In this document: piece after piece, positions 1 through 44,804 of the stretch
Layout: every line of letters starts with the position of its first letter
Position numbering within the stretch: the stretch's first letter is position 1
DNA from: Fibrobacter sp.
GTDB taxonomy: Bacteria; Fibrobacterota; Fibrobacteria; Fibrobacterales; Fibrobacteraceae
Assembly: GCF_017551775.1 (NCBI RefSeq)
Contig: NZ_JAFZKX010000013.1
Coordinates: 1 to 51,984, forward strand
Direction: 5' to 3'
Length of the DNA: 51,984 nt
The notes under the pieces: model-generated
What the model saw: only the letters and a program-made list of their open reading frames with translations
The model's database searches: none
What the model was told of the DNA's origin: nothing
Program-made: the position numbers and the translations under genes

Positions 1-1
1 C

Positions 2-163
2 ACGGCACACGGCCTCAAGTTCACCGAATTCAAGGTCGGCTACCACGAAAAGAAGCTCGAGAACATCTGCTCCAAGTACGCGAACCCCGTGTTCAAGGCT
101 CCGGCAGACCTCGGCGCCGTCATGGACATCTTGAAGAAAGAAATGGCAGAGAGAAGGCGCTAA
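2..163 (+). CDS. thrC: Threonine synthase, C-terminal end (partial)
   Basis: Only the last 53 codons are inside the window and the gene starts upstream of base 1. The frame reads TAHGLKFTEFKVGYHEKKLE and ends at a TAA at 161-163. The TAHGLKF segment, followed by a short helical tail with a conserved-looking PADLGAVMDIL stretch, matches my memory of the C-terminus of the shorter PLP-dependent threonine synthases, which convert O-phosphohomoserine to threonine. The catalytic lysine would lie outside the window, so no active site can be checked. Another PLP fold-type II enzyme is possible. The family call rests on a short tail only. Confidence 0.5.
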   Translation, partial: TAHGLKFTEFKVGYHEKKLENICSKYANPVFKAPADLGAVMDILKKEMAERRR

Positions 164-190
164 TAGCGTCATCCTGACGCCGCTAGCAAT

Positions 191-241
191 TGTCATCCCC
201 GCTGTCATTCTGGAGCGAAGCGATAGAATCACGGGGATCTC
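191..241. repeat. Intergenic repeat-like hairpin
   Basis: An inverted repeat, ATCCCCG at 195-201 and CGGGGAT at 232-238, encloses GTCATTCTGGAGCGAAGCGA. Similar short 'GTCAT...GAGCGAAG' strings are scattered through Fibrobacter intergenic DNA, as I recall. Only this copy is clear here, apart from a related-looking insertion in the gene at 41097-42839. Function unknown. Confidence 0.35.
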
Positions 242-263
242 CTTTTTAGCAGCAATTACAGAA

Positions 264-296
264 AAGAACCCGACATCAAGTCGGGCTCTTTTTTTT
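264..296 (+). terminator. Rho-independent terminator after the threonine synthase gene
   Basis: Stem CCCGAC (269-274) and GTCGGG (280-285), extended by AAGA/TCTT, is followed by a run of eight T. It ends transcription of the upstream plus-strand gene before the A+T-rich block. Confidence 0.8.
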
Positions 297-322
297 AGTT
301 TGTACAGAATAAAAAGTCAAAA

Positions 323-1042
323 TTATTTTATGCCATCATATCTCACACCTTCCATTTTTTTTACAAATGGATATAATTTCCATGAAACGCAGTAATATGC
401 AAACCTCGATGATTTATTATAAACATAAAATTTTTGCGGCTGACAATAAGTGTTATTTTCCACAACAATTGCCACCTCAACCTCCGTGAGATCAGGCAAA
501 TGCAATTCATCAATAAGATCCCAATAAGTATTTTCACGCTTACCCACTTCTTTCGTAAGTCTTTCCCCTTGCGTTTTTGGATCATCAGGAGATCTCCACC
601 GAACCCTCAACTTAGCCGGGTCATTCAAGACTCCTTTTTTTAAAACAATTCTTTTCGCATGGTTTTCTGGAGCCTTAAAATTCACCTTAGACACAAGCGA
701 AAAATTTTCTTCTTTTTCTTCAACTATATTAATAGTAACGTCCGAATTAACAACATTTCTTAAATGCTCTAAATAAAGAAATTCGAAACTGCGCTGTAAC
801 AAATTTCTGCGGTTTGTTACCACCAAACGAATTGTGCACCTCTTCCATTGCTGAAATGAATTCCGAATATCCCCCAGATTAATCGTCAGTGTTTGACCTT
901 TACGCAAGCCAGACGATTTCCAATTATTTACGATATCTGCAGAACCAGAGGATAGCGTAACTATTTTTCCATCAACGAGCAAATTTACGTTATAAGATTC
1001 ATTACCATTATTCGTTAAATAAATTTTTTTTACAATATCCAT
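323..1042 (-). CDS. Hypothetical protein, 239 aa, at the left edge of the A+T-rich island
   Basis: I do not recognise this protein. It is 239 aa, lacks a signal peptide or membrane segment, and is rich in alternating hydrophobic and polar residues typical of beta-sandwich folds: an N-terminal stretch KKIYLTNNGNESYNVNLLVD, then a Thr/Ile-rich half, then a basic segment near residues 130-170. The start at 1042 is the only ATG near the 5' end; an AGAGAG stretch about 8 bases upstream is a weak ribosome site. It is as A+T-rich as the four plus-strand genes that follow and is divergently transcribed from them across about 245 bases, so it may belong to the same transferred unit. Whether it takes part in their function is unknown. 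Confidence 0.65.
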   Translation of the reverse strand: MDIVKKIYLTNNGNESYNVNLLVDGKIVTLSSGSADIVNNWKSSGLRKGQTLTINLGDIRNSFQQWKRCTIRLVVTNRRNLLQRSFEFLYLEHLRNVVNSDVTINIVEEKEENFSLVSKVNFKAPENHAKRIVLKKGVLNDPAKLRVRWRSPDDPKTQGERLTKEVGKRENTYWDLIDELHLPDLTEVEVAIVVENNTYCQPQKFYVYNKSSRFAYYCVSWKLYPFVKKMEGVRYDGIK

Positions 1043-1287
1043 CAGAATACACTCTCTATCATAGTTTATTTGTATCTAACTTAACATAACTTTTTTTTCA
1101 AAAAAACACCAAAAGTAATCATTATTTTACGCAATATATTTGTTTTTCACATCTCTTGTATGCAATATTTTATGCAAATTCATCCAAAAATGTTTAATTT
1201 ACTAAACATTTACTTTATTACTTTTTATTTATTATATTACTTTGTTAGTCGCTATCTTTTACTAAACCTTCCCAATTTACATACTAT
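1043..1287. promoter_or_regulatory. Divergent A+T-rich intergenic region, probable promoters for both arms of the island
   Basis: The 245 bases between the minus-strand gene and the plus-strand cassette are very A+T-rich, with repeated TTTACTTTATTAC-like strings around 1199-1260. Several TATAAT-like hexamers fit on both strands, so I cannot choose a single promoter. No Shine-Dalgarno sequence is visible before the ATG at 1288. Confidence 0.35.
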
Positions 1288-3802
1288 ATGAGCAACGAGC
1301 AGAACAAAGAAAATATCACCGAAGGGACCTCCAACCCTATTTCAACAATAGCAGAAATATTAAAGTTCGCCGGTGAAATAATACTTTCCTCAGAAGAAAA
1401 AAAACGATTCAGAGGATTTTTCTACAAAAATAAGAACTCAATGCCTCCAGGCCTTTAACGATTTTATCGACGCCATCAGTACGTGGAAATCCGACGAAAG
1501 CGACAATTCCGAAACCAATGCGTTAGGAATTATCAGCAGCCTTCCCAGCAATATTGAAAAAAATAATATTTCCAAAAACACATCAAACACAAACAATTCC
1601 GCAACAAGCAAAAAGCGACTGTTATCAATTCCAATCAACAAACAACTTGATTTAGAAATCCTCAAGTTCAGCAACTCCGCTATCGACCTCGAAATCGAAG
1701 ATAAAGATTTCATCGCTTATCTCAGGACAGCCTTTACCGTCGACATCAAAGGAATCACCCTATCGCTCTCCAATTGTGGCGTCGGAATAAGGTTTAAATC
1801 GCTACTAGACCAAAGCAAATCCACAAATATCGAAGCCATCCTCAAATACCCCAATGGAATCGGCATAGGCATAGACGTGAATGCCGTAAAAGGTGCCGGC
1901 ATTATTCAATGGGAAAAAAATCGATTTTCCAGTGCCGTAGAACTAACAATTCTCGAAAAATTCAGCGCAAGCACAATGTTTGTCATCGCCACCAAGCCAT
2001 TCTCGCTCATGGCGGCGCTTAACACCGAATTCAACCCGGGGATCCAAATTGGAATGGGATTTGCCATTACAGGCATTGGAGGCTCCCTAGGCATAAACCG
2101 AGGCTTGGACGTCGACAATTTGACCAACGCCGTTTACGATGGAAGCCTTTCCTCCATCCTTTTTGTAAGGGACATCAAGAAAAACTTCGACAAAGTCCTT
2201 GCAAACGTAGATAAATTCTACCCCATAAGGGACGGGCAGATGTATTTCGGACTGCTCGCCCAAATTACCTGGGGAACAAAAGCCCTTTTCAAGGCGGATG
2301 TCGGTCTATTTATCCAGGCTCCAGAACCGCTAACCATCATCCTTGCCGGCGTTATCCATGTAAAAATCAAAGAATCGTTGGACAAGCTACTTGCAATCAA
2401 TGCAGACTTCATCGGAGCAATCCAGTTTGATAAAGGAATTTCTCTTGACGCATCTTTGTTCGACTCCCAAATCGTCGGCTTAGACTTGTATGGCGACATT
2501 GCGATGCGCATTTACTGGGGTGGCGAAACCAAGGGATTCGTCCTTACCGTCGGAGGATTCCATCCACAATACAAGCCGGATTCAGGATTCAACCTTCCCG
2601 CCTTAAAACGCGTCGGCCTAAAATTGGATTACAAAATCCTCAAGATGTCGCTCGACACCTACTTTGCAATAACATCGAATACAGTGCAATTCGGGGCAGC
2701 CTTCTTTATGTGTATTGGCTGGGAAAAATTTGGCATTACAGGCAACGCCGCTTTCAACGCCTTGTTCCAATTCAATCCCTTCGCCTTTACGGTCGACATG
2801 TCCGCCGGCCTCGCCGTAAAACTTGGCCGTTGTACACTTTGCGGCATCTCGCTCGCATTCGAGCTGTCCGGTCCCGCTCCATGGCATGCCAAGGGCTGTG
2901 CTGAATTTTGGGTCGTCATTAAAATCAAGGTCAATTTCAACCTTACATGGGGTAAAACGAACAAAGGCCAAGCCATTGCCCCCACCAATGTATACGCCTT
3001 GTTCCACGATGAATTCTCCAATAAGGAAAAAGAGAAATCAAACTGGACAGTAATCTCGTCTGACCAGACAGACAACATGGTTACCCACATATCTTTCGAT
3101 AACCTCGGATTAATCATCGCACCAAACGATACCATAGTATTCAACCAAACAGCCGTACCATTCGACCAAGACATGGATTTTTACGGAGAAAGCAAGATAG
3201 ACGATTTTTGCAAGTTGGAACTGGAGAACGTCTATATCGGAGATGCCCCAATTAAAGAATTAAAAAAAGAGAAATCCTCTTTTGCGCCCAGCCTCATAAC
3301 AAAAATGAGTGACAAAGAAAAGCTCTCAAAAAAATCCTACGAAAATATGAATAGCGGATTCCAAGCAGGCGACATATTCCAAAAAGTCTCCGGAAAAATT
3401 GAAGAAAAAGAAATAAAAAAAGAAAAGAATTACATGACAAGTTCTGCCGAATTCGAACGCTGGAAAAATGGAACATCAAAAAACAAAAACATTAATATTC
3501 ATAAAATCGTCAATCGAGCCACTCAACCCATGGCCACATCAAAAAAATTCAGCATAGAAAACCGAATAAAAAACATCAAAACGTCTCAAGCCAAAGATTC
3601 TACGCGCACAGAGAAAGAGGTATTTCCCAGTATTATAAGGGTTATTCAGGAAACAACGAAGAATCTGCCCCAAAAAGATTCTTCAGAAAGTCTTCGTCCC
3701 CCCAAAAAAGGCATAACCTTAAAGGCTTCGTACAACAGGAGTTCCGTCGGCATCGAAAGATACATCAAACAGATGAACGAATTAATCCGCATCAAACCTT
3801 AA
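1288..3802 (+). CDS. DUF6603-like protein, first gene of the giant-protein cassette, with an apparent frameshift
   Basis: Coding spans 1288-3802 in two frames. The first 56 codons (1288-1458) begin MSNEQNKENITEG. The second frame is open from about 1382 to 3802 but has no ATG before a GTG at 1877. Removing one base from the eight-A run at 1397-1404 joins them into about 837 aa. The middle part (window about 1990-2960) contains GFAITGIGGSLGINRGL and a long series of amphipathic beta strands, which I associate with DUF6603, a family of unknown function. The tail contains FAPSLITKMSDKEKLSKKSY and is Lys/Ser-rich and probably disordered. No signal peptide or catalytic motif is seen. It lies 50 bases upstream of the next gene. 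The frameshift may be an inactivating indel, an assembly error, or slippage-dependent expression. Confidence 0.6.
1397..1404 (+). other. Eight-A run at the frame break of the DUF6603-like gene
   Basis: The run AAAAAAAA follows GAAG and lies where the N-terminal frame (from 1288) and the main frame (open from about 1382) overlap. One extra A relative to an A7 run would explain the break. Runs like this are prone to polymerase slippage and to homopolymer sequencing errors. Confidence 0.6.
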
Positions 3803-3852
3803 ACGAATTAAATCTGAGCAACGATAGAATTTTGCCAAAACAAGAGTCCCTT

Positions 3853-6800
3853 ATGAACAACCAAACCTATTTTTCTCCCTGGGTTAGAAAAGGCTTAGGC
3901 CTCCACATTAACGAAAAAGATCTTCTTGGTCTAGATTGCCAAAACTCTCTAATAAAGAATCGTCCAACAGTTACTGTATCGGCAGAAATCTGCGGATACA
4001 AAGACAAAGAGGGAAAAGTAAAAGAAACAAGATACGAAAGCAAGGAAATCAGCATTGCAGGCCCTGGCGATGTATTGAATATCACAACCAAAGCTATTAA
4101 ACACGTATTTCCTGAATCGAGTAACGGGACAATTGTCGTAAATCATCGTCCATACATCGAATTTTGGGAACCCGATTTTGCCTGGCGCTATACCCCAGCT
4201 TGCGCCAATGAAGGCAATCTGCGCCCATGGATCGCACTCGTTGTTTGCGAAGAGGGCAAATACAATATCGAGCAAAACAAAGTCACATTCGTTGTAGACT
4301 CAGAAGAAGAATACAAAAAAATATTCCCAGACCCAAAGGAAATCTACAAATCAGCACACGCACAAGGCGACTCCGATGAAGATGTAACCTTTTGCCGCAT
4401 CCTTTGCCTAGGGGGGGCCTCTTTTAAAGAGGAAAATTCCATTTTTGGAAAAGAATCAAAATATTTCAGAGCTTTTCTTATTCCAGTCTTCGAAGTCGGA
4501 CGCCTCAGAGGGCTAGGTTATAGTGAAGATATTTTGAGTACAACCCCAGCCCAAGCCCCCGCTTGGGAAGAATCTTGGGCAAGACAAAAAGGAAAGAAAG
4601 ATTCCTTAGTTTTTCCCTTTTATTACTCATGGACTCTCCAGCCCAAAGGAAAATCGTTTAATCAACTGGTTCAAGAACTAAAGCCTAATAATGATGTTGA
4701 AGATGGAATCTACATCGATGTTACCGCCCTAGGAGAGGGGCTTTCGTGTAAATCAAGCGATACCCCTCAAAAAAACGGAACCATCTGCATGCCAGCCGCT
4801 TTAGGGCCAACAAGCGACAATCCCGAAGAAGCATTTCCATCACAGGGAACTAATCTTTACAAAAATTTGAAAAATTTACTATCCAGGAACCCAGTCTTTA
4901 GCGAGAACAAAGAAATAATAAACGAAATAAGTTACAACGCAGAAAAAGACAATGAAGATCCTTGGATCGTTCCTCCCGTATACGGAGCTAAACACGTTCT
5001 TGCGACATCTTTAGAAAGTAACGATACCCCCCCGTGGTTAAAGCAAATCAACCTAGATTTGCACCATAGGGCGGCTGCAGGGCTCGGAAAAAAAGTGGTA
5101 CAAAGGCACCAAGAAGAGTTCGTACACCGAGCCTGGGAACAAGTCGAATTTGTAAAGAGCATAAATGCCGACTTAAACCAAAAGATGCTCAGCGTAAATG
5201 TTCAGAAATCCATACAGAAGCATAACTATAAATGGTTAGAATCAGAGGCAGACAAAAAGAAGTTATTAGCAAGGCTGATAATGAACCTTCCGCTCATGCG
5301 AGATGTGGGCTCCGGAAGCGATGAAAATAGCTCCAGCTCCATTTCAAAAATTCTCACCAAAAAAGGAATTCCCCAATCCTTTGCAACTACATCATTTTTA
5401 AGAAGAACTGGAGATATCTTTAAACACAGCAAAGAAGATACAACCGAAACCAGTTCCCTAATGGAAAGAATCGCCGAAAATCAAACGTACACCATTCCAG
5501 TTGCCAAAGACTTGATAAAAGCGCCATCCTTTAGTGATTTAACAAATTTCTTTTCAAAGCTAGTAAGGCTTCTTGACAAAAAGGAAGGCCTTCTCAACAC
5601 TGCTGAAATATTTTCAAAATTTTCATGCGCAAGTTTCAACCGCCAGGATTTTGGGCAATACAATAGCGCATTTTCCATCAGGACAATGATGTCATTTTCC
5701 AACAAAACTTCCTCCAGTTCCGATAGTATGTACGCACTCTGGGATAGGTCTAATTGTGCAGGAGAAGACAACAATGCGGCACACATGTCATTCGATACCG
5801 CTAGATTTAATTCATCGGTAGGATGGATAAAGAAGAAAGGAAAGAGTAGTATAAAGGACTACAGGGAGCCTCGAAATATTTATCTTGGCAAAGGTTCTTC
5901 CCCACAGCCTATAAATAATGGAGACAACTATGATGTCATCGCTTTGGAAACATCCAAATTCAAAAAGACTTTTCCAAAAGCAACCAAATCTATTGTTAGA
6001 ATTCAGGACAAAGATAAGGATATTTGCCTCCTCTTTGTAAACAGGGATGAAATACAAAAGCAAAACAGCCCAATAAAAAAATTCTTTATGCTGTATGATA
6101 AAGAAAAAAAAGAAATAAAAATGCCATCCCGATATCCATCCAAAGATGAGTGGAAAAAAGAAGCCCAGACAAAGCTCTGCAATGGGGAAAACAACTCTGA
6201 GGTTCGAATCTATTTAGAATACTTATACTGTTACTATTTTAATCCATCCTACATTCTCGCCGATGCAGAACTCATTTCAAACACCGAATTTGTTGAAGAC
6301 TTTAATATTCAGGTCATTCACAATTCTCTGGTATCACTTTGGAGTAAAATTCAATCTATCAAGCAGAGTAGTCCTAGCAGCAGTTCAAACAACAATGGCA
6401 ACAACAATGATAACGAGAACGAAACGAATGCAAAAATTGAAATACTTGTCAAAAGTTTGATAAACTCTAAAACCAACGAATATATTAATAAAAAGATTGA
6501 GAAATACTTCAATATATTCTTGAACAATCCAGAATCAATCAAGAAATATAAAGCAAGCCTTTCAACATCCAAATACCCCATTATGGCCTATCCGATTTTC
6601 CCGGAGCCAACCTATTACTACCTAAAAGCAATTTCTGACGAATTTATTTTACCGGGAATTGATGACATTGAAAACAATACAATATCAATGTTCAAAAACA
6701 ATCCAACCTTTATCGAATCATTCCTTTGCGGAATGAATACAGAAATGGGCAGAGAATTGCTATGGAGAGAATACCCGACAGATCAACGAGGCTCCTATTT

Positions 6801-7332
6801 CTGCAAATTTTGGGATACAGACGTAAGCATTGATGACATCAAAGACGATAACTACTTTGATGTAAAATCGCTACATGATTGGAAAAATGATATCGGACAT
6901 AATCATCTTGGCAATAAAGGCGATCTGCTTGTTTTTGCAATAAGGGGAGATTTGATGAAAGCCTACCCCGACACAAAAATAACCCTCAGAAAAGCTTATT
7001 ACGACGCCACTGCACATAACGAATTAAAACTCGTGACAGACGATAACCTTCCCGACAATATACTTGAGCCTACATCACAAGCTTTCATTCGAGACGACAT
7101 CTACATTGTAAGTTTCGATATAAGCCCAGACGATGCCATCGGCACATTCAATACAAACCGCAATATAAATAGCGGATACTTTTTGTCCTTTGAAAAAAAC
7201 ATCGAAAATACCGAGTTCAAAGCAAAAGTTTCTCCATCTAGCAATTTGTCCAATGCAGCCCTATTCGCAACAGAACATTTAGTAACAGCCGAAATCTACA
7301 ACATACACGTCTCAACCTTAATCAGTGAATAG
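3853..7332 (+). CDS. Cassette protein 2, large uncharacterised protein of 1159 aa
   Basis: Function unknown. The N-terminus begins MNNQTYFSPWVRKGL; RPTVTVSAEI, IAGPGDVLNI, PYIEFWEPDFAWRYTP and LRPWIALVVCEEG follow within the first 150 residues. I recall this order (PW-R-GL, GPGDV, PDF-W-YTP, RPW-LVV) from long hypothetical proteins of scattered bacteria that occur beside DUF6603 genes. There is no signal peptide or transmembrane segment and no recognisable enzyme motif. A Ser/Asn-rich low-complexity patch lies near window 6370-6425. I chose the ATG at 3853 over a TTG seven codons earlier because it directly precedes the conserved-looking start. The stop at 7332 is four bases before the next gene's ATG, so translation of the two is probably linked. 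Confidence 0.7.
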   Translation: MNNQTYFSPWVRKGLGLHINEKDLLGLDCQNSLIKNRPTVTVSAEICGYKDKEGKVKETRYESKEISIAGPGDVLNITTKAIKHVFPESSNGTIVVNHRPYIEFWEPDFAWRYTPACANEGNLRPWIALVVCEEGKYNIEQNKVTFVVDSEEEYKKIFPDPKEIYKSAHAQGDSDEDVTFCRILCLGGASFKEENSIFGKESKYFRAFLIPVFEVGRLRGLGYSEDILSTTPAQAPAWEESWARQKGKKDSLVFPFYYSWTLQPKGKSFNQLVQELKPNNDVEDGIYIDVTALGEGLSCKSSDTPQKNGTICMPAALGPTSDNPEEAFPSQGTNLYKNLKNLLSRNPVFSENKEIINEISYNAEKDNEDPWIVPPVYGAKHVLATSLESNDTPPWLKQINLDLHHRAAAGLGKKVVQRHQEEFVHRAWEQVEFVKSINADLNQKMLSVNVQKSIQKHNYKWLESEADKKKLLARLIMNLPLMRDVGSGSDENSSSSISKILTKKGIPQSFATTSFLRRTGDIFKHSKEDTTETSSLMERIAENQTYTIPVAKDLIKAPSFSDLTNFFSKLVRLLDKKEGLLNTAEIFSKFSCASFNRQDFGQYNSAFSIRTMMSFSNKTSSSSDSMYALWDRSNCAGEDNNAAHMSFDTARFNSSVGWIKKKGKSSIKDYREPRNIYLGKGSSPQPINNGDNYDVIALETSKFKKTFPKATKSIVRIQDKDKDICLLFVNRDEIQKQNSPIKKFFMLYDKEKKEIKMPSRYPSKDEWKKEAQTKLCNGENNSEVRIYLEYLYCYYFNPSYILADAELISNTEFVEDFNIQVIHNSLVSLWSKIQSIKQSSPSSSSNNNGNNNDNENETNAKIEILVKSLINSKTNEYINKKIEKYFNIFLNNPESIKKYKASLSTSKYPIMAYPIFPEPTYYYLKAISDEFILPGIDDIENNTISMFKNNPTFIESFLCGMNTEMGRELLWREYPTDQRGSYFCKFWDTDVSIDDIKDDNYFDVKSLHDWKNDIGHNHLGNKGDLLVFAIRGDLMKAYPDTKITLRKAYYDATAHNELKLVTDDNLPDNILEPTSQAFIRDDIYIVSFDISPDDAIGTFNTNRNINSGYFLSFEKNIENTEFKAKVSPSSNLSNAALFATEHLVTAEIYNIHVSTLISE

Positions 7333-7336
7333 CAAA

Positions 7337-10300
7337 ATGAGCGACATACAAGAATTTGACAAAATCCTTTCAAAGATTCCTCAAACATCCCCCCTGTTTC
7401 TCTTTCCCTTGAGACTGGAGACACATTTTAGCCCTAGTAATCCAGGAAAGAAAAAACAGCTTCGCGTCAGGATTATCCCCGACGAAGCGCTTTTGAAATA
7501 TAAAAAAGAGTCCTTGACATCCGATGAAAAAGAAGACGGGACATTCTTCTGGTTCCAGTGGTATATTGCAAGCGGTGATGAAGAACGCGAATATGAAGCA
7601 TGGGAGAATCTTTGTTCTAAGTATCCCGTCCACCGAGCGGCATGGATTTGCAGAACTTTAAGGCCAAAAGATATAGTAAACTATCGAAAAGGTGGTGTCC
7701 AATTTGGCAATCGTCCATATGTCGGGATGGAAGAAATTGAAAAAAAATGCTCAGCTATATACGAGACACTCGAAAAAATCTCATTCAATGAGCTTGACGA
7801 TGTAAAAAAAACAGAAAATACAAAAAGTAACTTCGAAATTCAAATTAATGAAAATCTCGAATCAATCCAAGGTAATATAGGCGACATAACGACATACATA
7901 AAAAAGCGCAAATTTATCGTTGATTATCTTTGTGACACAGTTTATAACATGGCCGTTTATTTAAATCAGCGCCTTGATTATTACGAAATTATCTACCAAA
8001 AACACCCAGATTTAAAATCGACCAATTCTATTCAACTATGGGATGCCGACTACAGTCTTTTAAATGCGGTTAAGGAGGATGTTAAAGACCTTATCAATAA
8101 ATTAATCGATAAGAAAAAATCTCTTTCAGATGTAATCAATCAGTGCCGAAAAGACAATCCCAATTTTTTCCCAAATTGCCAAGTCGACGATAACCCAAAT
8201 TCAAACTTTAATTTTCCAACAGCCGAATTATTTCCCAATCAATTCTTATTTATCGGAGAAACCAAAACAGATAAAAAGATTATCTACAAATTGTCCAAGT
8301 ATAAAGTCAAAAAAGATTGCATAAGCACCTTTTTTGACTTACAAAAAGATACTCTTAATCAAGAAGCAACCGAGCTAGAATTTGACGAAAAAGCCAAATG
8401 GCTTGTCGATTATAAAGCCGCCGAAGACATGGGGATGGCGATAACAATTGACCTTGACGATTCCGTCAAAGGGTTCAATTTTATCTATGTGCTAGGAATA
8501 AAAGAAGAATACTCTAGCGATACTTTTGAAAAGTTATTTAATGGGCACAACTACAATACATCTTCGCTTCAATTTATTCCCGCCCGTACCAAGACAAATA
8601 TTGTCGAAAAGGATTCATGCGCATCAGAATCTCTCAGTGAAGAAGATTTGATGCGTAAACGCTACGAAATCGAAGTCAACGACTATTACATAAACGAAAA
8701 AAGAAATGATGCAAACGTCATTTCAGAATTATTTGCAGGAGAAAACATCTATAACAATTGTTTTGGACACATCGCAAACTTTGACTTAAAGCAGGATCAT
8801 GAAACAGGGCAAGCATACAGTCTCCTTTGGACGGTCTTAAATGAATCAGAAATTATTGCATCGTTTAACAAAGACATCTATTCTTTCCTTAAACACTTTA
8901 TAAAAAACAATCTTCGAGCCTGCGGGAAATTTCCCTCTATAAGAATTGACAATCTCCCGTACGGAATCCTTCCCGTATCGGACTTTCAAAGAATCTGTAA
9001 CGATTTTTACAAGAATCGAAAAATAATCTTCAAGACACGCACATTTGCGGAAGCAGGATTTTTATTAAACGATTTGGTTGCCTTAGCAAACAAATGGAAA
9101 GATTTACGCAACAAGGAACAGATTTCAGCCCCCTTCAAAGGAAACAACGCAGAAAAAGACTACCTTAAGATGGCAGGGCAAACGCCCTATTCCATTTCAT
9201 TTTCTGAAAGAAAACTCATCCATTCGCCTTTATTAGAAGAAAATACACCAGATAAATTAAATTCGACAACAAGTCAGTTTTCACAAAAAATATTTGGACA
9301 AAGCAGTATTTTCAACGAATTAATTAGTCGTAAATTATTTTCTGCCGAACCAATCAAAGAGGCGGTCAATGAATATTTAGACGAATCCGGCAATTCAGAA
9401 ATTTTTGAGAAAAACGAAATAACAAAAAAATTAATAAGAGCCTTAACAACAGGAGAAAACAAATTCACCGACGACATCGAAGTCGCAAAAAAATACGTTG
9501 GTGAATTCCTTGACCTTTTTACATACAGAATAGACGCCTGGTTCAGTGGAATTCTCGACTACATCAGGACAGAAAACCGACTTACCCCATCCTTTTTAGG
9601 AGCCTATGGTTGGGTTTTCGATTTAAATGAAGGAAATTCAAAGTCCGATAGCGACCACTTTATATTGGCGCCGTCATTACAGCATGCCTTATCTGCTGCT
9701 GTTCTAAGAAGCGCTTATACAAAATCAATAAAAGATAAACAAGATAGTCACATTTGTGTCAACCTGTCATCTATGAGAGTACGGCAGGCCTTAAGACTCA
9801 TAGACGGAATAAAGATCGGCATGTCCATGAGCGTTGTTCTTGGATGCGATTTAGAGCGATATCTGCACGACGCCTCAAATCTATACAATATTGAACTAGA
9901 CCGTTGTATCATCCCGTTACGAGAGGAATTTCCTCAAATCAACAATATAGACTCTCAAACAGATGAAGCACATAGCTATATAATGCAAGTCATTAATGGG
10001 GAAGCGCTGCTTGATACTATAATCAATCATAAAAATTGGAAATGGGAACAGACAACCTCCAAATGGTTAGAAACAAACGAAGGTTCTATTAATTGGATAA
10101 GAGGTCTTGATCTTAAAGACGAGAAAGAGAAGAGCGCTTTCTTCAAAATCATAGAACGCTTGATGGATTCTTATGACGCATTGAACGATTTATTGCTTTC
10201 AGAGGGTGTTCATCGTCTGGTTATGGGCGACAAGGAATCATTTGCTGCCATTGGCAATTTTATCGCTACAGGTGAGGGGGGAGTTCCAGAACCAGAACTC

Positions 10301-11788
10301 CTAAAATTCCCTAGTGAAAAAGTCGTTGTTGCGCATAAGGCCGGTCTTATTCTTCCACAATCAAAGAGCGAAATTTCAAGCAAGCCCTTGTGTATGGCAG
10401 ACCCCGCCATAGACGGCTGGATAGATTCTATTTTGGGTGATACAGCCAACATCTATTTCACCATCAATGGAGGAGCATGTACCCTCGCAGATTTAAATAT
10501 TTCTGCAGCAGAATACCTTTACCTTTCGGCAAACCCGCAAGCATTCAACAAATACCTTGAAATATGCTGGCGAATCAAGAACAATAAATTCAATAGCGAG
10601 CCGATTGAATTCACCGAAAGCCCCATTGATCTTGAAGCACAAGATATGGGCACTCGCCTGAGCCTCGAAGAAGACGCCCTCAGAATAGAGACCCTTCGCA
10701 AGATAATCAAGGCCGGACGAAGCCTAAAGCCATCGGATTTGCTGAATCCAGACGAGAACAATATAACAGACGAAGACTATATTGACTCTAATGATTTAGA
10801 AAAACGATTCAATACAATCGCACAAAAAGCCAAAGACCTTCACAAGGAATTGAAAAAATGGTTGGATGAGAATAAGAGCGCAGCTCAACTTGACGAGAAT
10901 GCCATCCGTCGTGCATACGAGCTCCTCTGCAATTGCTATGAACTCGGCATGGTGAACAGCCTCATCGAGTACAAGACGGATATTTTCAATTCCGAAGAAT
11001 CAAAGGCCTTGCTGCATCAATATGTAGAAGACGCAATGAACGATTTAGATATCAATTCGAAATCGAAGAATCGAATTCTCTCTGCAATCGAACAATTCGA
11101 ATCTAAGGATTACGTTTCTGCCATTCAGACGCTCACATTGAAAAACGCAAAAGTATTCCCGCTGTTTAAACTTCCTCCAAACAATTTGGGAATTGATAAC
11201 GACATTGCGGATGACTTTTCAAAAATTCAAAATACAGACAAAGATTCCTTCGAAAAATGGGAAGACGAAATTGCCGAAGTCCGCAGCGGCATGAAGGAAA
11301 TACACAACCTCTCCATGTTCCAGACGGCTCTTGAAAAGGATGTCGGGAAAATCTCTATTTTACAGAATACAAAAAAGACTGATGACGAGAGCAAAAAATG
11401 GTATTGGATGGGAGCTGCGGTCAAAGACGAAAAATACCTAACAGACGCCGATTCCCTAATCCTATACAACACGGGTTCCTATGAATGTGGAAACAATTAC
11501 AATTCCGGATTCATCTTTGATTCCTGGATAGAATACATACCATATAAGAAGCACAACGCAGGCCTAGTTTTCCATTGCGACAAACCGGACAATGAAGCTC
11601 CGCAGGCACTCCTATATGCGATGTATCCGAGCGTAGTTCCATCTAGCCAAGAAACATGGAATTTTGATTCCTTAAAGGAAATCCTAGACACAACCCGATT
11701 CATGATGATGAACCGCGCCGTAGAACCGGATATGATTTACAAAGACATGGAACTATCAAGAATATTCCCCTTGATTAAGCAAAAATAG
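7337..11788 (+). CDS. Cassette protein 3, giant uncharacterised protein of 1483 aa
   Basis: Function unknown. Near the N-terminus PLFLFPLRLETHF is followed by KKQLRVRIIPDEALLKY and, about 60 residues later, RAAWICRTLRP. I remember this pattern (PVRLETRF, LRVRIYPD, ARAAWI) from large hypothetical proteins linked to the other cassette members. The C-terminus holds PQALLYAMYPSVVPSS and TTRFMMMNRAVEPDMIY, also typical of that group as I recall. It is acidic, Lys-rich and mostly helical in the middle, with no export signal. The ATG at 7337 lies four bases after the preceding stop; a GTG at 7325 would overlap that stop. Codon use is A+T-rich like its neighbours. The gene looks intact. Confidence 0.7.
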   Translation: MSDIQEFDKILSKIPQTSPLFLFPLRLETHFSPSNPGKKKQLRVRIIPDEALLKYKKESLTSDEKEDGTFFWFQWYIASGDEEREYEAWENLCSKYPVHRAAWICRTLRPKDIVNYRKGGVQFGNRPYVGMEEIEKKCSAIYETLEKISFNELDDVKKTENTKSNFEIQINENLESIQGNIGDITTYIKKRKFIVDYLCDTVYNMAVYLNQRLDYYEIIYQKHPDLKSTNSIQLWDADYSLLNAVKEDVKDLINKLIDKKKSLSDVINQCRKDNPNFFPNCQVDDNPNSNFNFPTAELFPNQFLFIGETKTDKKIIYKLSKYKVKKDCISTFFDLQKDTLNQEATELEFDEKAKWLVDYKAAEDMGMAITIDLDDSVKGFNFIYVLGIKEEYSSDTFEKLFNGHNYNTSSLQFIPARTKTNIVEKDSCASESLSEEDLMRKRYEIEVNDYYINEKRNDANVISELFAGENIYNNCFGHIANFDLKQDHETGQAYSLLWTVLNESEIIASFNKDIYSFLKHFIKNNLRACGKFPSIRIDNLPYGILPVSDFQRICNDFYKNRKIIFKTRTFAEAGFLLNDLVALANKWKDLRNKEQISAPFKGNNAEKDYLKMAGQTPYSISFSERKLIHSPLLEENTPDKLNSTTSQFSQKIFGQSSIFNELISRKLFSAEPIKEAVNEYLDESGNSEIFEKNEITKKLIRALTTGENKFTDDIEVAKKYVGEFLDLFTYRIDAWFSGILDYIRTENRLTPSFLGAYGWVFDLNEGNSKSDSDHFILAPSLQHALSAAVLRSAYTKSIKDKQDSHICVNLSSMRVRQALRLIDGIKIGMSMSVVLGCDLERYLHDASNLYNIELDRCIIPLREEFPQINNIDSQTDEAHSYIMQVINGEALLDTIINHKNWKWEQTTSKWLETNEGSINWIRGLDLKDEKEKSAFFKIIERLMDSYDALNDLLLSEGVHRLVMGDKESFAAIGNFIATGEGGVPEPELLKFPSEKVVVAHKAGLILPQSKSEISSKPLCMADPAIDGWIDSILGDTANIYFTINGGACTLADLNISAAEYLYLSANPQAFNKYLEICWRIKNNKFNSEPIEFTESPIDLEAQDMGTRLSLEEDALRIETLRKIIKAGRSLKPSDLLNPDENNITDEDYIDSNDLEKRFNTIAQKAKDLHKELKKWLDENKSAAQLDENAIRRAYELLCNCYELGMVNSLIEYKTDIFNSEESKALLHQYVEDAMNDLDINSKSKNRILSAIEQFESKDYVSAIQTLTLKNAKVFPLFKLPPNNLGIDNDIADDFSKIQNTDKDSFEKWEDEIAEVRSGMKEIHNLSMFQTALEKDVGKISILQNTKKTDDESKKWYWMGAAVKDEKYLTDADSLILYNTGSYECGNNYNSGFIFDSWIEYIPYKKHNAGLVFHCDKPDNEAPQALLYAMYPSVVPSSQETWNFDSLKEILDTTRFMMMNRAVEPDMIYKDMELSRIFPLIKQK

Positions 11789-11811
11789 GCAACCAGGAAG
11801 AGGACTCTATT

Positions 11812-13740
11812 ATGGCAATTGACGAAAAGAACAATGGCGCATACGCTTTTATCACGAACACAAGCCATCTTGAAAGTACCATAGAAAAATATATAAAGAA
11901 AACTGGCGATACCGAAATCTGGTCGAGAATCGAGCCCAGGACTAGGAACAACAACTACGACAACGCCCTTTCCTTCGAGGTATTCGACCCTCTTTGGATG
12001 CTTACCCGCCAGTGGCAATACGGACGTTTTCAAGGAAACGATTGCGGCACACCTGTACAAATGAAGATTAAAACAAGCCGCAAAAAAATCACCCAGCTGC
12101 AATATAAAAAAGCAGATGGAGAATGGGCTTCAAAGCCCTACAGTACGGAGCGTCCGACAGAATACGATGTCGAAAAACAAGATTACGACATCACACCGTA
12201 CGTGCGTGTAGAATCCGCGATGCAGTTGACAAAAAAGCTCAAGGCCAGAGGACTTTCCAATTTAGTTCCTCAGTTAAAAAATAAATATCCATTAGAAATT
12301 GCTTTCAAAGGCGACGCCCTTGAAGAACTCAAAACAAAAAACAACAAAACCCTGAAGAAATTTATCGCATTCTATGCAAAGCGTTCTTTCGATGGATATA
12401 AAGTATATTGCGAAATCAAGAGCAACAGCATTTATAAAAACATAGCAGGCACCGAATCGGCAAAGGATGAACTAGAAAAATACGCCCAATGGTTTGGCAA
12501 CAAGTTCCTGCCTAACGAGGCCGACAACAATTACTGGAGCACCGAAAAACTCGGTTACGAAGTCGGCATGAAATTAGACAACACAAAGAATTCCTTGACA
12601 TATTCCACCGAATGTTACGATTCCGGTACATTATCGTGGTATTCTTTCGACGGATCCGGAGAACTTCCCAAGCCTCTGGAGAGTGAGACAAAAGAATGGA
12701 CAACCATTCCTACACCGGCGACATTCCCTGGTGCTCCAGCACAAAGGCTCTGGGAATTCGAGGACAGAAAAGTCCAGATGGGCAACAGCGTCCCCGACGA
12801 AAGGTTCATATCAGCAGCAACAATGATGCAGTACGTCAGTATGTACGGCAACGACTGGATGATTAGCCCGATAGAAGTCGAAACAGGTACCGTCATCAAT
12901 GTCAAACAAATCGAGGTCATAGATACCTTCGGCGAACCAAGAGTCATTGATAAAAGCGCTGAAGACATTGACAACAACAAAATAAACACCCCTCCCATCA
13001 ACCGTTGGAGTTTATTCGGCACAACTAAACCAGACGCTTACAAGAACGATGACTTTTCCATAAACAAGGGACTTGTCTGCCCGCCGACGGTCCTGCGTTG
13101 CGAAGAAAGCGCCCCTATCGAAGAAGTGCAGTTCCTTCGCGACGAGATGGCCAACATGGTATGGGGCGTCGAAAACAAGATAAACGACGGCTGCGGCGGC
13201 ACCATGGACGGCAAGACGCTCTCAGACGCGGTATTCGAAGATGTTGACCGTCATAACGCTCTTGAAAATTCGAACACATCCGAAAAGGCGAAAAACGACG
13301 CGAAGTATTCCCTGCTCATCCAGAACAGGGTTCCGCTGAATTGGATTCCGTTCATCCCCGAGCAGAAATCCGACAAGTGCAACATCTTCATGAGACGCGC
13401 CAAGATGCCCATTTTCTACAAAAACGAAGACCCCACCAAAGATCCCTACTTGCCGACACGCCCGTCCACCCAGCTTCTGGGTGCAAAGGGGGCCGGAGTT
13501 TCGGACAACGAATACAAGCCCTTCCGTATCGACGAAGACCAATTCGGCGGCTATGGCTTCAAGGTCACCAAAACGGCGCAACGCACCCGCTGGTTCAACG
13601 GAGAATCCTTCTGCTGGCTGGGCAACCGCAAGACAATCAGCGAATACCAAGCCAACAGCGGGCTGCTCTTCGACGAACTGATCCGCAAATCCGACGGGAA
13701 GCAGATAGAAAACCAGAATATCGTGGAAGAAGCCCCGTAA
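11812..13740 (+). CDS. Cassette protein 4, uncharacterised protein of 642 aa
   Basis: Function unknown. Residues 35-75 contain WSRIEPRTRNNNYDNAL, then FDPLWMLTRQWQYGRFQGND, a strongly patterned segment I recall as RLEPR...DPLW-L-RQWQ-GEFQGED in proteins that accompany the preceding two families. The C-terminal part includes NWIPFIPEQ and a Gly/Phe-rich stretch (DQFGGYGFKV). There is no signal peptide or membrane helix. A good ribosome site (AGGAAGAGG) lies upstream of the ATG, and the gap to cassette protein 3 is 23 bases. Base composition changes within the gene: the last third (from about 13080) is clearly more GC-rich than the start and resembles the flanking chromosome. A terminator follows at 13773. 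Confidence 0.7.
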   Translation: MAIDEKNNGAYAFITNTSHLESTIEKYIKKTGDTEIWSRIEPRTRNNNYDNALSFEVFDPLWMLTRQWQYGRFQGNDCGTPVQMKIKTSRKKITQLQYKKADGEWASKPYSTERPTEYDVEKQDYDITPYVRVESAMQLTKKLKARGLSNLVPQLKNKYPLEIAFKGDALEELKTKNNKTLKKFIAFYAKRSFDGYKVYCEIKSNSIYKNIAGTESAKDELEKYAQWFGNKFLPNEADNNYWSTEKLGYEVGMKLDNTKNSLTYSTECYDSGTLSWYSFDGSGELPKPLESETKEWTTIPTPATFPGAPAQRLWEFEDRKVQMGNSVPDERFISAATMMQYVSMYGNDWMISPIEVETGTVINVKQIEVIDTFGEPRVIDKSAEDIDNNKINTPPINRWSLFGTTKPDAYKNDDFSINKGLVCPPTVLRCEESAPIEEVQFLRDEMANMVWGVENKINDGCGGTMDGKTLSDAVFEDVDRHNALENSNTSEKAKNDAKYSLLIQNRVPLNWIPFIPEQKSDKCNIFMRRAKMPIFYKNEDPTKDPYLPTRPSTQLLGAKGAGVSDNEYKPFRIDEDQFGGYGFKVTKTAQRTRWFNGESFCWLGNRKTISEYQANSGLLFDELIRKSDGKQIENQNIVEEAP

Positions 13741-13772
13741 CAGCTAACGGCCTCGACATAACACATATAGAA

Positions 13773-13805
13773 AAGGCCCCGCATTCATCTGCGGAGCCTT
13801 TCTCA
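13773..13805 (+). terminator. Terminator closing the giant-protein cassette
   Basis: Stem AAGGC-CCGCA with TGCGG-A-GCCTT, loop TTCATC, followed by TTTCT. The opposite strand also ends in TTTT, so it may serve the convergent secreted-protein gene that stops at 13864. Confidence 0.75.
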
Positions 13806-13863
13806 TATTCTCAAGCCCTATCGTGGCGGCCGGCGGCCGCGCTCCAGGGCTACATTACCAGGA

Positions 13864-16800
13864 CTATTTTTTCTTCTTGCGGCGTACGCCCCACTTGTCC
13901 TTGATTTCTTCTTCGATCTTCTTCTTCTCGTAACGGACGACCATCTTGAACTGCACCGAGTAAACGCCCGTTCCCACGAAGCGGCCGCGGTGATCCTTGA
14001 AGTTCCAGTTCACGAAGATCTTCTTGTCCGAAACAAGGCAGTTTCCACCGAACTTCGGGCTCTTACAGGGCACGATGATGGTCGTATCGTTCACGTACTG
14101 TCCCAAGTGGTCGTAGTAGTTCACGACGAACGTGATGAACACCTTCTCCGGATCGAGCGAATCGAGCACCGTCGGGTCTACCGTACCGTCCGCAGAAATC
14201 TGCGCGCGGTCGAGGAGTTGCGGCACGAAGCGTTCACCCAGCTGCACCAGCTGTCCGAGCGCCCCTTCCTTCTCCATGTCTTCCTTGGTCGTGGAGCCGT
14301 CCATGTAGCGCAGGTTCACGGAGCTCAGGGTACGCAGCACTTCATCCTCGCCATCGAAGGTACCCATGTTGGTCGCCTCGACAAGGTGGTTCAGCAGGCC
14401 TGCGATAACAACCGGGCTCGGCTTTTCGCCGGCGACGTTGCCGAAGTTATCCTGGATGACGCTCTTCGCGCCCTTCACCACCATGAGCGAGTCACCCGGG
14501 AGGATAGTGGAGACGCTGCCATCGATGATGAGCTTCGCGCTCAGGCCGTCGGCAGCCCAGTCGATTCCCTTCGGGGTGATATCGATGGTATCCTTGCCGT
14601 GGATGTAGCGGAAGAAGTCATCGCCCTTCAAATCCTTGTACTTGATGGTTTCAGAGAAGTACACGATAAGCGTATCGGCCTTGTTCCCATAGCTGAGGGT
14701 AACGCCAGCGACCACCGGCGACATCTTGTCGACAAGCGGTGCGGCCTCTTCGCTCACGAACGTCTGTCCCAGCACGTCGTAGTAGCTGAAGATGGTCGCG
14801 TTCGGCAGAGATTCGCTGATGCTCGTCACGCCCTTCGCGATCGGGGTCGTAGAATGCACTTCCCACACAAGGCGCGTGGAATCCTTGCCGTCGAACTTCA
14901 TGTCGGAGGGCTGAGCCTGCAGCTGGATGAGCATGCCGCGTTCGCTGTACCACGGGAACGTCGCATAAATCATGTCCTTTTCCTTGGCACTCAGCGCTTC
15001 GCTGAAGTTGGTAACGATATGATCGAGCACGCCGTCGCCATCCTCGTCCCTGTACTCGACGTCAACAACGGCGGGCAGGCGGTCCATGACGGTCACCGGC
15101 ACTTCGCGGTCGTATTCGTCGGAAGTCACGTAGCGAAGGTTGCTGAACTGTACCTGCGGGTGCAGCGAGACGCTGTCGCGGTCGTTGCCCTTGAGGCCCA
15201 TCTTCTCGCCCACGAGGATAACCATGTTCCTGGTCGGCATGTACACGTTGGTAATCTGGTCCAGATCGAAGCCGTAGCGCTTAGCATCTTGCTTGAGCAT
15301 CACGAGCAGTTCCGGCGTCGAGAGGTCCTTCGGGATGATGTCGATGTTGAACTCGATAAACAGGGAGTCCTTGCCTCTCGTATTGCGGATGGCGAAGGCA
15401 TCCTTGATGACGTGGCTGCCGACCTCGACAATTCCCGTCTCGCGGATGTAGGTCGAGCCGTCATGCACGCTGGTGTAGGTGATGATGGCGATGGCATCCT
15501 CCGGGAACTTCTCCGGGAACGTCAGGTCTTCCACCTTCAGGGATATGCGGTCGCGGGAATCGTTCAATGTGGGTTTGTGCTTCGTCCTGAGCGTATCGCC
15601 GTTCACCACGAGCGCCACGGAGGCCACCTCGAGATCCGCGATCACGGAATCCTTCAGCACGATTTCCACGTAATCCAAGCCATCGAGGCCATCGGAATCC
15701 TTGATGTAGCCAAGTTCCGCATCCGGAATCGGGTCGTAGAAGTTGATGTTATCGATAATGACGGTCGTATTGCTCACGGGGTCATGCACGATGATGGAGC
15801 CGCCCTGGATGACGCTGTCCGCAGTCACCCAGATGGTAATGGAGCCGTCGGCGTTCACCCTGATAGTGTCGTTCGGATTCGGGTTCGTGGGGTCAATCAG
15901 GATAAGGCCCGAGCCCGTCGCGAACGTGAGGCTATCCAGGTTGGTGCCGAAGTATTCGGCAACCTTCGCGGAATCGAGCGTGAGAGCCACCACCTGGCCC
16001 ACCTGGGCGGAATCCAGTCCGGAATTCACGCGCAGGTCAAGCTTGAGCCCGGTCGGGTTGTTCTCTTCCATGTAGTAGTTCTCGCCGATCTTGATGAAGC
16101 CAGTACCGCTACCGGAATCCACCGGCAAGAGCACCGTGGCCGAAGCGACAAGGGAATCGCCCTTCTCGTACTTGTCATCGGACGGGTAGAAGTCGATGCC
16201 ACCACTGCTGGAGAGGTCGTAGTCTTCGAACCCGACATACACTCTCGAGGAACTAGAGCTGTTTTCGATATCTTCGGCACCGGTCTGCCTGCTGGAAGAG
16301 GTACCCGGGTTGCTGCCGGAAGAAGTTCCCGGGTTGCCGCCGGAAGAATTGCCGTTATTGCCGCTGGAATTGCCCGGATTATCGTTGGACGAACCAGGGT
16401 TGTTGCCGCTGGAGTTGCCCGGATTATCGTTAGACGAACCAGGATTGCTGCCGCTGGAGTTGCCCGGATTGTCGTTAGACGAACCGGGGTTGCTGCCGCT
16501 GGAGTTCGGGTTGTCGTTGGACGAACCGGGGTTGCTGCCGCTGGAGTTCGGGTTGTCGTTGGACGAACCAGGGTTGTTGCCGCTGGAGTTGCCCGGATTA
16601 TCGTTAGACGAACCAGGATTGTTGCCGCTGGAGTTGCCCGAAGAAGAGGACTTCACGCTGCTGCTAGACTTCACGCTGGAAGAGGATTCCTGGTAAGTGA
16701 TACGCGAAGAACTGAAACCGACGCTGCTGCTGTACTCTTCTTCGTCAGAACCGGTATTCGCACCCGTACGGACAACACCCGCGCCCGAAAGGGGAGCAAG

Positions 16801-20759: not shown

Positions 20760-21055
20760 AGGGGACCTCAATAAAACAAACACTACACCCTAACGGGTGC
20801 ATTTACATTATTAAATGTATCTTTTTTTTTAGAAAAGTGGGAACGACGGCCATCACACCGGGCCCTAGAGCAGGCCGTTCTGTGATGCTCCGCATACATA
20901 CAGGGGGTTACGGGCCATTTTTCACTCAAAAATGTTATTCCAATATGGAATAAACTAGCGAATTTTTCAGTGTTTTTGCAGGGATTCTTCCTGCTTTCGG
21001 AGCCTCTTGCAACCGGGGCTTCCGAGATTTTCTCAAAAAACAATTAGCAACAACA
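20760..21055. other. Intergenic region upstream of the secreted-protein operon
   Basis: About 296 bases between the hemW stop and the 905-aa gene. It holds overlapping inverted repeats (ACGGCC...GGCCGT and CATCAC...GTGATG, about 20848-20888) next to a run of ten T on the plus strand, which could be a structured 5' leader for the operon. The open frame of 86 codons here has no ribosome site and is not called. Confidence 0.3.
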
Positions 21056-23556: not shown

Positions 23557-23629
<73 letters not shown>

Positions 23630-23634
23630 CTAAA

Positions 23635-44729: not shown

Positions 44730-44802
44730 GCCACTCTAGCTCAGCTGGTAGAGCAGCTGATTCGTAATCAGCAGGTCGGCAGTTCAAATCTGCTGGGTGG
44801 CT
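44730..44802 (+). tRNA. tRNA-Thr (anticodon CGT)
   Basis: Acceptor stem GCCACTC pairs with GGGTGGC (44795-44801), discriminator T. D-arm AGCTCAGCTGGTAGAGC. Anticodon stem GCTGA/TCAGC encloses TTCGTAA with CGT at 44763-44765. T-loop TTCAAAT. CCA is not encoded. It reads ACG codons. Confidence 0.95.
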
Positions 44803-44804
44803 CG

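What the first reader, a model, noticed from the sequence alone, without database searches (positions are those of the whole stretch)
1288..13740. Four-gene cassette of giant proteins of unknown function (DUF6603-like plus 1159, 1483 and 642 aa)
Four co-directional genes with gaps of 50, 4 and 23 bases, one terminator, no recognisable enzyme, export signal or phage structural gene, and a common A+T-rich composition unlike the flanks. Patterned segments (GFAITGIGG; PWVRKGL...GPGDV...RPWIALVV; FPLRLETHF...LRVRIIPDE; DPLWMLTRQWQYGRFQGND) match, from memory, families that occur side by side in scattered phyla. Such conserved co-occurrence of proteins without an assigned role points to one multi-protein assembly.
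Basis: partly seen in the sequence, partly recalled or inferred. Interest (0 to 1): 0.8.

Follow-up and report, generated by a model that had tools for sequence, protein, structure and literature searches.

The report
Mobile four-gene giant-protein assembly
Four neighbouring genes for very large proteins of unknown function form a fixed unit that has moved between many unrelated bacteria and salt-loving archaea, where it often travels with a protein-cutting enzyme; it looks like one large molecular assembly that nobody has described, although the copy in this genome may be partly broken.

Summary
The cassette is real. P2, P3 and P4 are intact; gene 1 (DUF6603) is not one open frame from 1288. 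It changes frame at 1382-1458 and lacks about 1,190 N-terminal residues found in four congeners. Window ~165-13,864 is a strain-specific insert: two sister genomes have the site empty, a third holds another insert. One pattern scan of 84,980 species found 456 P4 relatives, across many phyla; haloarchaeal plasmids carry it too. P1-P2-P3-P4 are adjacent and in that order with one exception per test; P3-P4 are fused in one genome. Nine DUF6603 genomes carry a second class with a diverged P2. No Pfam, NCBIfam, PHROG, PADLOC or PDB sequence match fits P2-P4, and two fold libraries give none for P3C-P4. DUF6603 is predicted as an amphipathic beta meander, loosely like ApoB-100 or porins. Elsewhere the operon often holds a variable hydrolase; the trypsin-fold and one subtilase share a C-terminal domain found only beside cassettes. 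Phage/tail reading not supported. Best guess: a membrane- or lipid-surface scaffold that docks a swappable hydrolase, probably for biological conflict. The assembly is well supported; the function is inferred.

The parts
1288..3802 (+). P1, DUF6603 protein: two overlapping frames (1288-1458 and 1382-3802), N-truncated and frame-shifted relative to congeners
   Evidence: frames; PF20248 E=1.5e-82; congeners 1954-2184 aa
1751..3421 (+). DUF6603 core: predicted amphipathic antiparallel beta meander
   Evidence: own HMM; model, core pLDDT mostly >85
3853..7332 (+). P2, 1159 aa; its N-terminal region is homologous to P2' of the second class
7337..11788 (+). P3, 1483 aa
11812..13740 (+). P4, 642 aa, with DPLWMLTRQWQYGRFQGND motif
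13771..13801 (+). GC-rich hairpin with short T tail, possible terminator (seen by eye; not listed by the scan)
165..13864 (.). extent of the strain-specific insert (sister genomes have window 1-164 and ~13,865 onward adjacent)
323..1042 (-). 239-aa ORF of unknown function on the opposite strand, inside the same insert

Best explanation
P1-P4 are subunits of one large, horizontally moved assembly. SHOWN by comparative data: the unit, its fixed order, its transfer, and a recurring hydrolase slot in relatives. INFERRED: P1 (a long amphipathic beta sheet) lies on or in a membrane or lipid surface; P2, P3 and P4 build a scaffold in which the end of P3 packs on P4; and, in relatives, a hydrolase encoded in the same operon (trypsin-fold protease, subtilase, a possible clan-CD-type cysteine peptidase, a PLD-like or a PhoD-like protein) is held and released or switched on by that scaffold, in the proteases through a dedicated C-terminal domain. 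Swappable enzyme, constant core, horizontal transfer and patchy presence fit a biological-conflict (defence or killing) device best. The window copy has no linked hydrolase and a shortened, frame-shifted P1, so it is probably a reduced or decaying copy.
For: Unit; P3-P4 fusion, joint model. Transfer: insert with empty sites in two sister genomes, plasmid copies in Streptomyces, Nocardia, Rhizobium, Paraburkholderia, Gemmatirosa and haloarchaea, P4 tree needing at least 10 label changes for Bacteroidota. Beta sheet; strand alternation 3.19 against a shuffled mean of 1.32 and maximum of 2.06, 0 of 2000; ApoB-100 beta-belt VIA Z 15.9 over 270 aa at rmsd 8.7. Hydrolase slot; invariant H134/D182/S278; 12 of 26 cassette genomes against 0 of 21 controls, with every match that covers the C-terminal domain on the cassette contig and the off-cassette matches lacking it; that domain also ends a subtilase in L136.
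Against: No neighbour enrichment for known defence families (16 PADLOC families, one hit each among 102 genes). The hydrolase is absent in the window and in the rumen subgroup, where a DUF6734 protein follows instead. The ApoB/porin similarity has rmsd 8.7 or more and a topology shared by many beta meanders; it shows neither homology nor lipid binding. The clan-CD reading rests on two motifs only; PLD and PhoD assignments were made by eye. No inter-domain error matrix was available for P3C-P4. No expression or activity data.
Confidence: 0.35

Rival explanations
1. Surface or adhesion complex: P1-P4 form a large cell-surface or released structure, with variable terminal domains (lamin-tail, FG-GAP, PKD, collar-like) giving binding specificity.
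For: Lamin-tail domains on haloarchaeal P4, FG-GAP on a Streptomyces P2, PKD in some linked proteases, tail-collar-like ends in the second class; a sister genome has an FG-GAP protein at the same site.
Against: The N-termini of P1-P4 in the window show no obvious signal peptide (read by eye); most P2-P4 carry no such domain; S1 RNA-binding domains are fused to one P1.
Confidence: 0.2
2. Lipid-body or lipoprotein-like particle: P1 wraps a lipid droplet or granule as ApoB does, P2-P4 complete the coat, and linked hydrolases remodel it.
For: Amphipathic beta meander and ApoB beta-belt similarity; PLD-like partner in L137.
Against: Patchy, horizontally moved distribution and variable proteases are unusual for storage; large rmsd; no lipid-metabolism family is among the most frequent in 102 scanned neighbours.
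Confidence: 0.15
3. Phage tail, contractile injection system or similar delivery particle.
For: Scattered occurrence on plasmids and islands; a tail-collar-like end in the second class.
Against: No PHROG, Pfam or PADLOC tail or injection family; one phage record, which carries bacterial genes such as a zinc alcohol dehydrogenase; one partial IMG/VR contig of 2.9 million; no BFVD match at E<=0.001 for P3C-P4.
Confidence: 0.05
4. A compartment or particle whose linked proteases are maturation proteases cutting P1-P4 during assembly.
For: Proteases with a cassette-specific C-terminal domain, often in tandem copies.
Against: At least three hydrolase types, and a PLD-like protein, occupy the slot; many cassettes, including the window's, lack a visible protease.
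Confidence: 0.15
5. In the window the cassette is simply decaying: P1 is a pseudogene and the rest is not yet degraded (compatible with any of the functional readings for the relatives).
For: Frame change and loss of ~1,190 N-terminal residues in P1; the DUF6734 gene found in the nearest relatives is missing.
Against: P2, P3 and P4 keep full open frames of 1159, 1483 and 642 aa; short P1 forms (768-993 aa) exist elsewhere; the frame change could be an assembly error.
Confidence: 0.4

Closest known systems
DUF6603 (Pfam PF20248)
   Same: P1 is a clear member (278 bits, cut-off 27).
   Different: The family has no function assigned in Pfam; neither DUF6603 nor PF20248 occurs in the searched papers.
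Apolipoprotein B-100 beta-belt / large transmembrane beta-barrels (porins, ushers)
   Same: Long antiparallel amphipathic beta meander; best PDB matches of the P1 model.
   Different: rmsd 8.7-16, identity at most 12%; no evidence of homology, of an outer membrane or of lipid binding.
Bacterial gasdermin systems and protease-containing immune systems such as those in PMC12799240
   Same: Variable trypsin-like, caspase-like or subtilase proteases encoded beside a conserved partner that may act on membranes (comparison partly from own knowledge).
   Different: Different core proteins, far larger; no gasdermin, NLR or CRISPR component found; immunity not tested; no PADLOC match for P1, P2 or P4 at E<=1 and only a weak one for P3 (HEAT-ARM_XIII, E 0.0055).
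Second-class DUF6603 cassettes (L110, L111, L113-L119)
   Same: DUF6603 plus a P2 homologue in order, followed by a very large third protein.
   Different: P3' not detectably related to P3; P4 not detected; downstream genes variable (collar-like, weak Hint match, NHL-like).

Membership tests
DUF6603 (PF20248) | Score above the curated cut-off over most of the domain | tested here: met
   278.3 bits against 27, profile 73-501 of 502 from the GTG-1877 frame; the whole-genome search matched profile 13-501
Phage tail / contractile injection system | Sheath, tube, baseplate or tail families among P1-P4 or the flanking genes scanned | tested here: not met
   No such match for P1-P4; none in the families shown for 102 neighbours
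Phage structural protein (by fold) | Fold match of P3C-P4 to predicted viral proteins | tested here: inconclusive
   No BFVD hit at E<=0.001; absence of a match does not exclude the fold
Known anti-phage defence system | PADLOC match to a system component | tested here: not met
   Only a weak HEAT-ARM_XIII match for P3 (E 0.0055); no recurrent family among 102 neighbours
Known anti-phage defence system | Protection of a host against phage | not testable with these tools
   needs a plaque assay
Large lipid transfer proteins (ApoB-like) | Sequence homology to ApoB, vitellogenin or MTP | tested here: not met
   No PDB sequence hit for the P1 profile at E<=1
Large lipid transfer proteins (ApoB-like) | ApoB-type beta-belt fold | tested here: inconclusive
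   VIA Z 15.9 but rmsd 8.7 over 270 aa; porins score about the same
Bacterial gasdermin system | Gasdermin fold in the core protein | not tested
   P1 is a much larger beta meander; no gasdermin was compared directly
Trypsin-fold serine proteases (linked gene in relatives, absent in window) | His-Asp-Ser triad | tested here: met
   H134, D182, S278 (GDSG) invariant in 14 aligned sequences

The most novel reading that the evidence does not exclude
P1-P4 are a prokaryotic machine of a new kind: a giant amphipathic beta sheet that engages a membrane or lipid surface, built into a scaffold with P2-P4, and armed in relatives with interchangeable proteases or lipases docked by a cassette-specific domain, serving immunity or inter-cell killing across bacteria and haloarchaea.
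Probability: 0.25. Interest if true: 0.9.

Novelty: categorically new. Interest (0 to 1): 0.65.

Why it matters
A four-protein unit of about 4,000 residues is kept in fixed order from rumen bacteria to Streptomyces and haloarchaea, yet three of the four families have no entry in the family libraries searched and no name. The comparison defines the whole unit, a second class, and a hydrolase slot with its own docking-type domain. That turns four unknown proteins into a testable system: does the unit assemble, does P1 bind membranes or lipid, and does the assembly hold and control the linked protease?

Tried and rejected
Pfam, NCBIfam, PHROG and PADLOC scans of P2-P4: no usable match (BAR, V-ATPase and HEAT hits are weak, probably helical or coiled-coil similarity). 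PDB profile searches: none of note for P1, P2 or P4; P3 hits to TAL effectors (E down to 2.7e-6) have no stretch passing on its own and are read as repeat artefacts. Foldseek and VIA of P3C-P4 in PDB: nothing at E<=0.001; best VIA Z 6.2 on a helical stretch. First joint P3C/P4 alignment (A6) was misaligned and replaced by rows read through the stop between P3 and P4 (A7, A8). Defence-island idea: no enrichment. Phage origin: rejected as best reading. P3 against P3' and P4 in the second class: not detected. A second P4-neighbour cluster (P-loop protein in 15 loci, either strand) looks like part of a tRNA selenouridine synthase (from memory), so probably a frequent insertion point rather than a partner.

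Full report
Observation. The window has four co-directional genes at 1288-13,740. GC is mostly 35-44% against 50-60% in most of the downstream window. P1 carries DUF6603 (PF20248, E=1.5e-82), but not in one frame: ATG 1288 opens 56 codons (1288-1458), the DUF6603 frame is 1382-3802 and lacks a start codon before 1877. Four congeners have P1 of 1954-2184 aa, and the window frame aligns only to their last 750 or so residues. The window P1 is therefore truncated and frame-shifted; an assembly error at the A8 run in the overlap is possible for the shift but not for the missing part.

Insertion. The flanking gene at 13,864-18,021 matches in 41 of 41 genomes of the genus searched. In sister genomes G029 and G033 window 1-164 and ~13,865 onward are 75-136 bp apart; in G034 (flank protein 92% identical) a different ~3 kb insert with a 909-aa FG-GAP protein lies there. 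The cassette is thus a strain-specific insert at a site that takes other inserts. DUF6603 is found in 8 of 168 genomes of the phylum.

Distribution. P4 relatives: 14 plasmid records including Streptomyces, Nocardia, Rhizobium, Paraburkholderia, Gemmatirosa and four haloarchaea, and 456 of 489 pattern hits in one genome per species for 84,980 species (the 80 best are mostly Bacteroidota, Chloroflexota and Actinomycetota, with Acidobacteriota, Myxococcota, Nitrospirota, cyanobacteria and Pseudomonadota). This is a lower bound, from one peptide pattern. Phages: one unverified record, which carries an alcohol dehydrogenase and an nSTAND1-WD40 gene and is probably bacterial, and one 4-kb IMG/VR contig with a partial P4.

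One unit. Iterated profiles give P1-P2-P3-P4 in one order on one strand. P3 accompanies P4 in 87 of 88 loci with enough upstream DNA and P2 in 73 of 74; the three flagged order exceptions are two tandem double cassettes (L023, L075) and a P3-P4 fusion (L095). P1 is present in 27 of 28 genomes where the locus had been cut. Of 17 DUF6603 genomes, 8 have both P2 and P4 and 9 neither. Those 9 form a second class with P2' related to P2 (hhalign E 1.3e-6, probability 91%) and a large P3' not detectably related to P3. Distances among P2, P3 and P4 correlate at 0.93-0.96, with P1 at 0.71-0.75; shared descent of an operon alone would give this. The P4 tree mixes phyla, with at least 10 changes forced for Bacteroidota.

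Structure. The natural P3C-P4 fusion of L095, with 19 read-through paired rows, gives pLDDT 82.6 and pTM 0.82; it suggests but does not prove a rigid P3-P4 contact. No match in PDB or BFVD at E<=0.001. The window P1 core is a confident antiparallel meander of about 25 strands with strong hydrophobic/polar alternation. The best PDB neighbours are ApoB-100 (Z 15.9, rmsd 8.7, 270 aa) and porins (Z ~14, rmsd ~12). This is a shape class, not a homology claim.

Hydrolase slot. Upstream DNA of P1 from 20 genomes plus the plasmid and downstream sets show a recurrent same-strand neighbour: a trypsin-fold protease with invariant triad and a conserved ~120-aa C-terminal domain in 11 loci, often in tandem (upstream, or downstream in L034, L035 and L038); a subtilase with that same domain in L136 and another subtilase in L014; proteins with H-G and RGC-x-x-G motifs (possible clan-CD peptidases) in L120-L125; PLD-like in L137; PhoD-like (by eye) in L006 and L010. 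A whole-genome search found this protease in 12 of 26 cassette genomes and 0 of 21 controls; every match covering the C-terminal domain lies on the cassette contig, while off-cassette matches in G174, G175, G181, G187 and G190 lack it. The controls are all from one order and many have smaller genomes, so the enrichment figure is indicative; the linkage of the C-terminal domain is the stronger point. The rumen subgroup, including the window's kin, has a DUF6734 protein after P4 instead; the window has neither.

Interpretation. What it does is inferred: constant giant core, amphipathic beta-sheet protein, swappable hydrolase and horizontal spread fit a conflict device acting at a membrane or lipid surface best, but known defence families are not enriched nearby, and surface-structure, lipid-particle and maturation-protease readings remain. 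The searched open-access papers hold no mention of DUF6603 or PF20248; subscription papers and preprints were not searched, so novelty is judged within that limit.

Noticed in passing
window 323-1042 (-): 239-aa ORF of unknown function (no Pfam match above cut-off), part of the same insert as the cassette.
   Followed up: partly
L152:361-3087 (-): In a sister genome the same site holds a different ~3 kb insert with a 909-aa FG-GAP repeat protein, so this is an insertion hotspot between core genes.
   Followed up: partly
window 13864-18021 and 18042-20783 (-): Two adjacent large genes; the first matches in all 41 genomes of the genus searched, and the second shares ~27% identity with its C-terminal part.
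   Followed up: no
L110, L111, L113-L119: Second class of DUF6603 cassettes with diverged P2, unrelated P3' and downstream proteins with tail-collar-like ends (L114), a weak Hint match (L110) or a polyketide synthase next door (L113).
   Followed up: partly
L024, L027, L030, L031, L033-L036, L038, L040, L041, L044, L047, L070 and one more: A P-loop protein, with a rhodanese domain in L044, sits near the end of P4 on either strand in 15 loci, nearly all Bacteroidota; it looks like tRNA selenouridine synthase or its C-terminal half, so this may be an insertion point.
   Followed up: partly
L018, L017, L019, L020, L023, L002/L003: DUF6734 gene (glycosyltransferase-like DTD motif by eye) directly after P4 in the window's closest kin; absent in the window.
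   Followed up: partly
L023:13670-20446: P1 of a second tandem cassette carries S1 RNA-binding domains at its C-terminus; haloarchaeal P4 proteins carry lamin-tail domains.
   Followed up: no
L097: IMG/VR contig with a DnaB helicase gene directly followed by the start of a P4-like frame without P3; the only P4 lead in viral contigs.
   Followed up: partly
L017: Contig filed as Crenarchaeota, but its P4 groups with rumen Bacteroidota and the window; probably misbinned.
   Followed up: no
window 23557-23630 and 44730-44803 (+): tRNA-Gly (GCC) and tRNA-Thr (CGT); not near the cassette.
   Followed up: no
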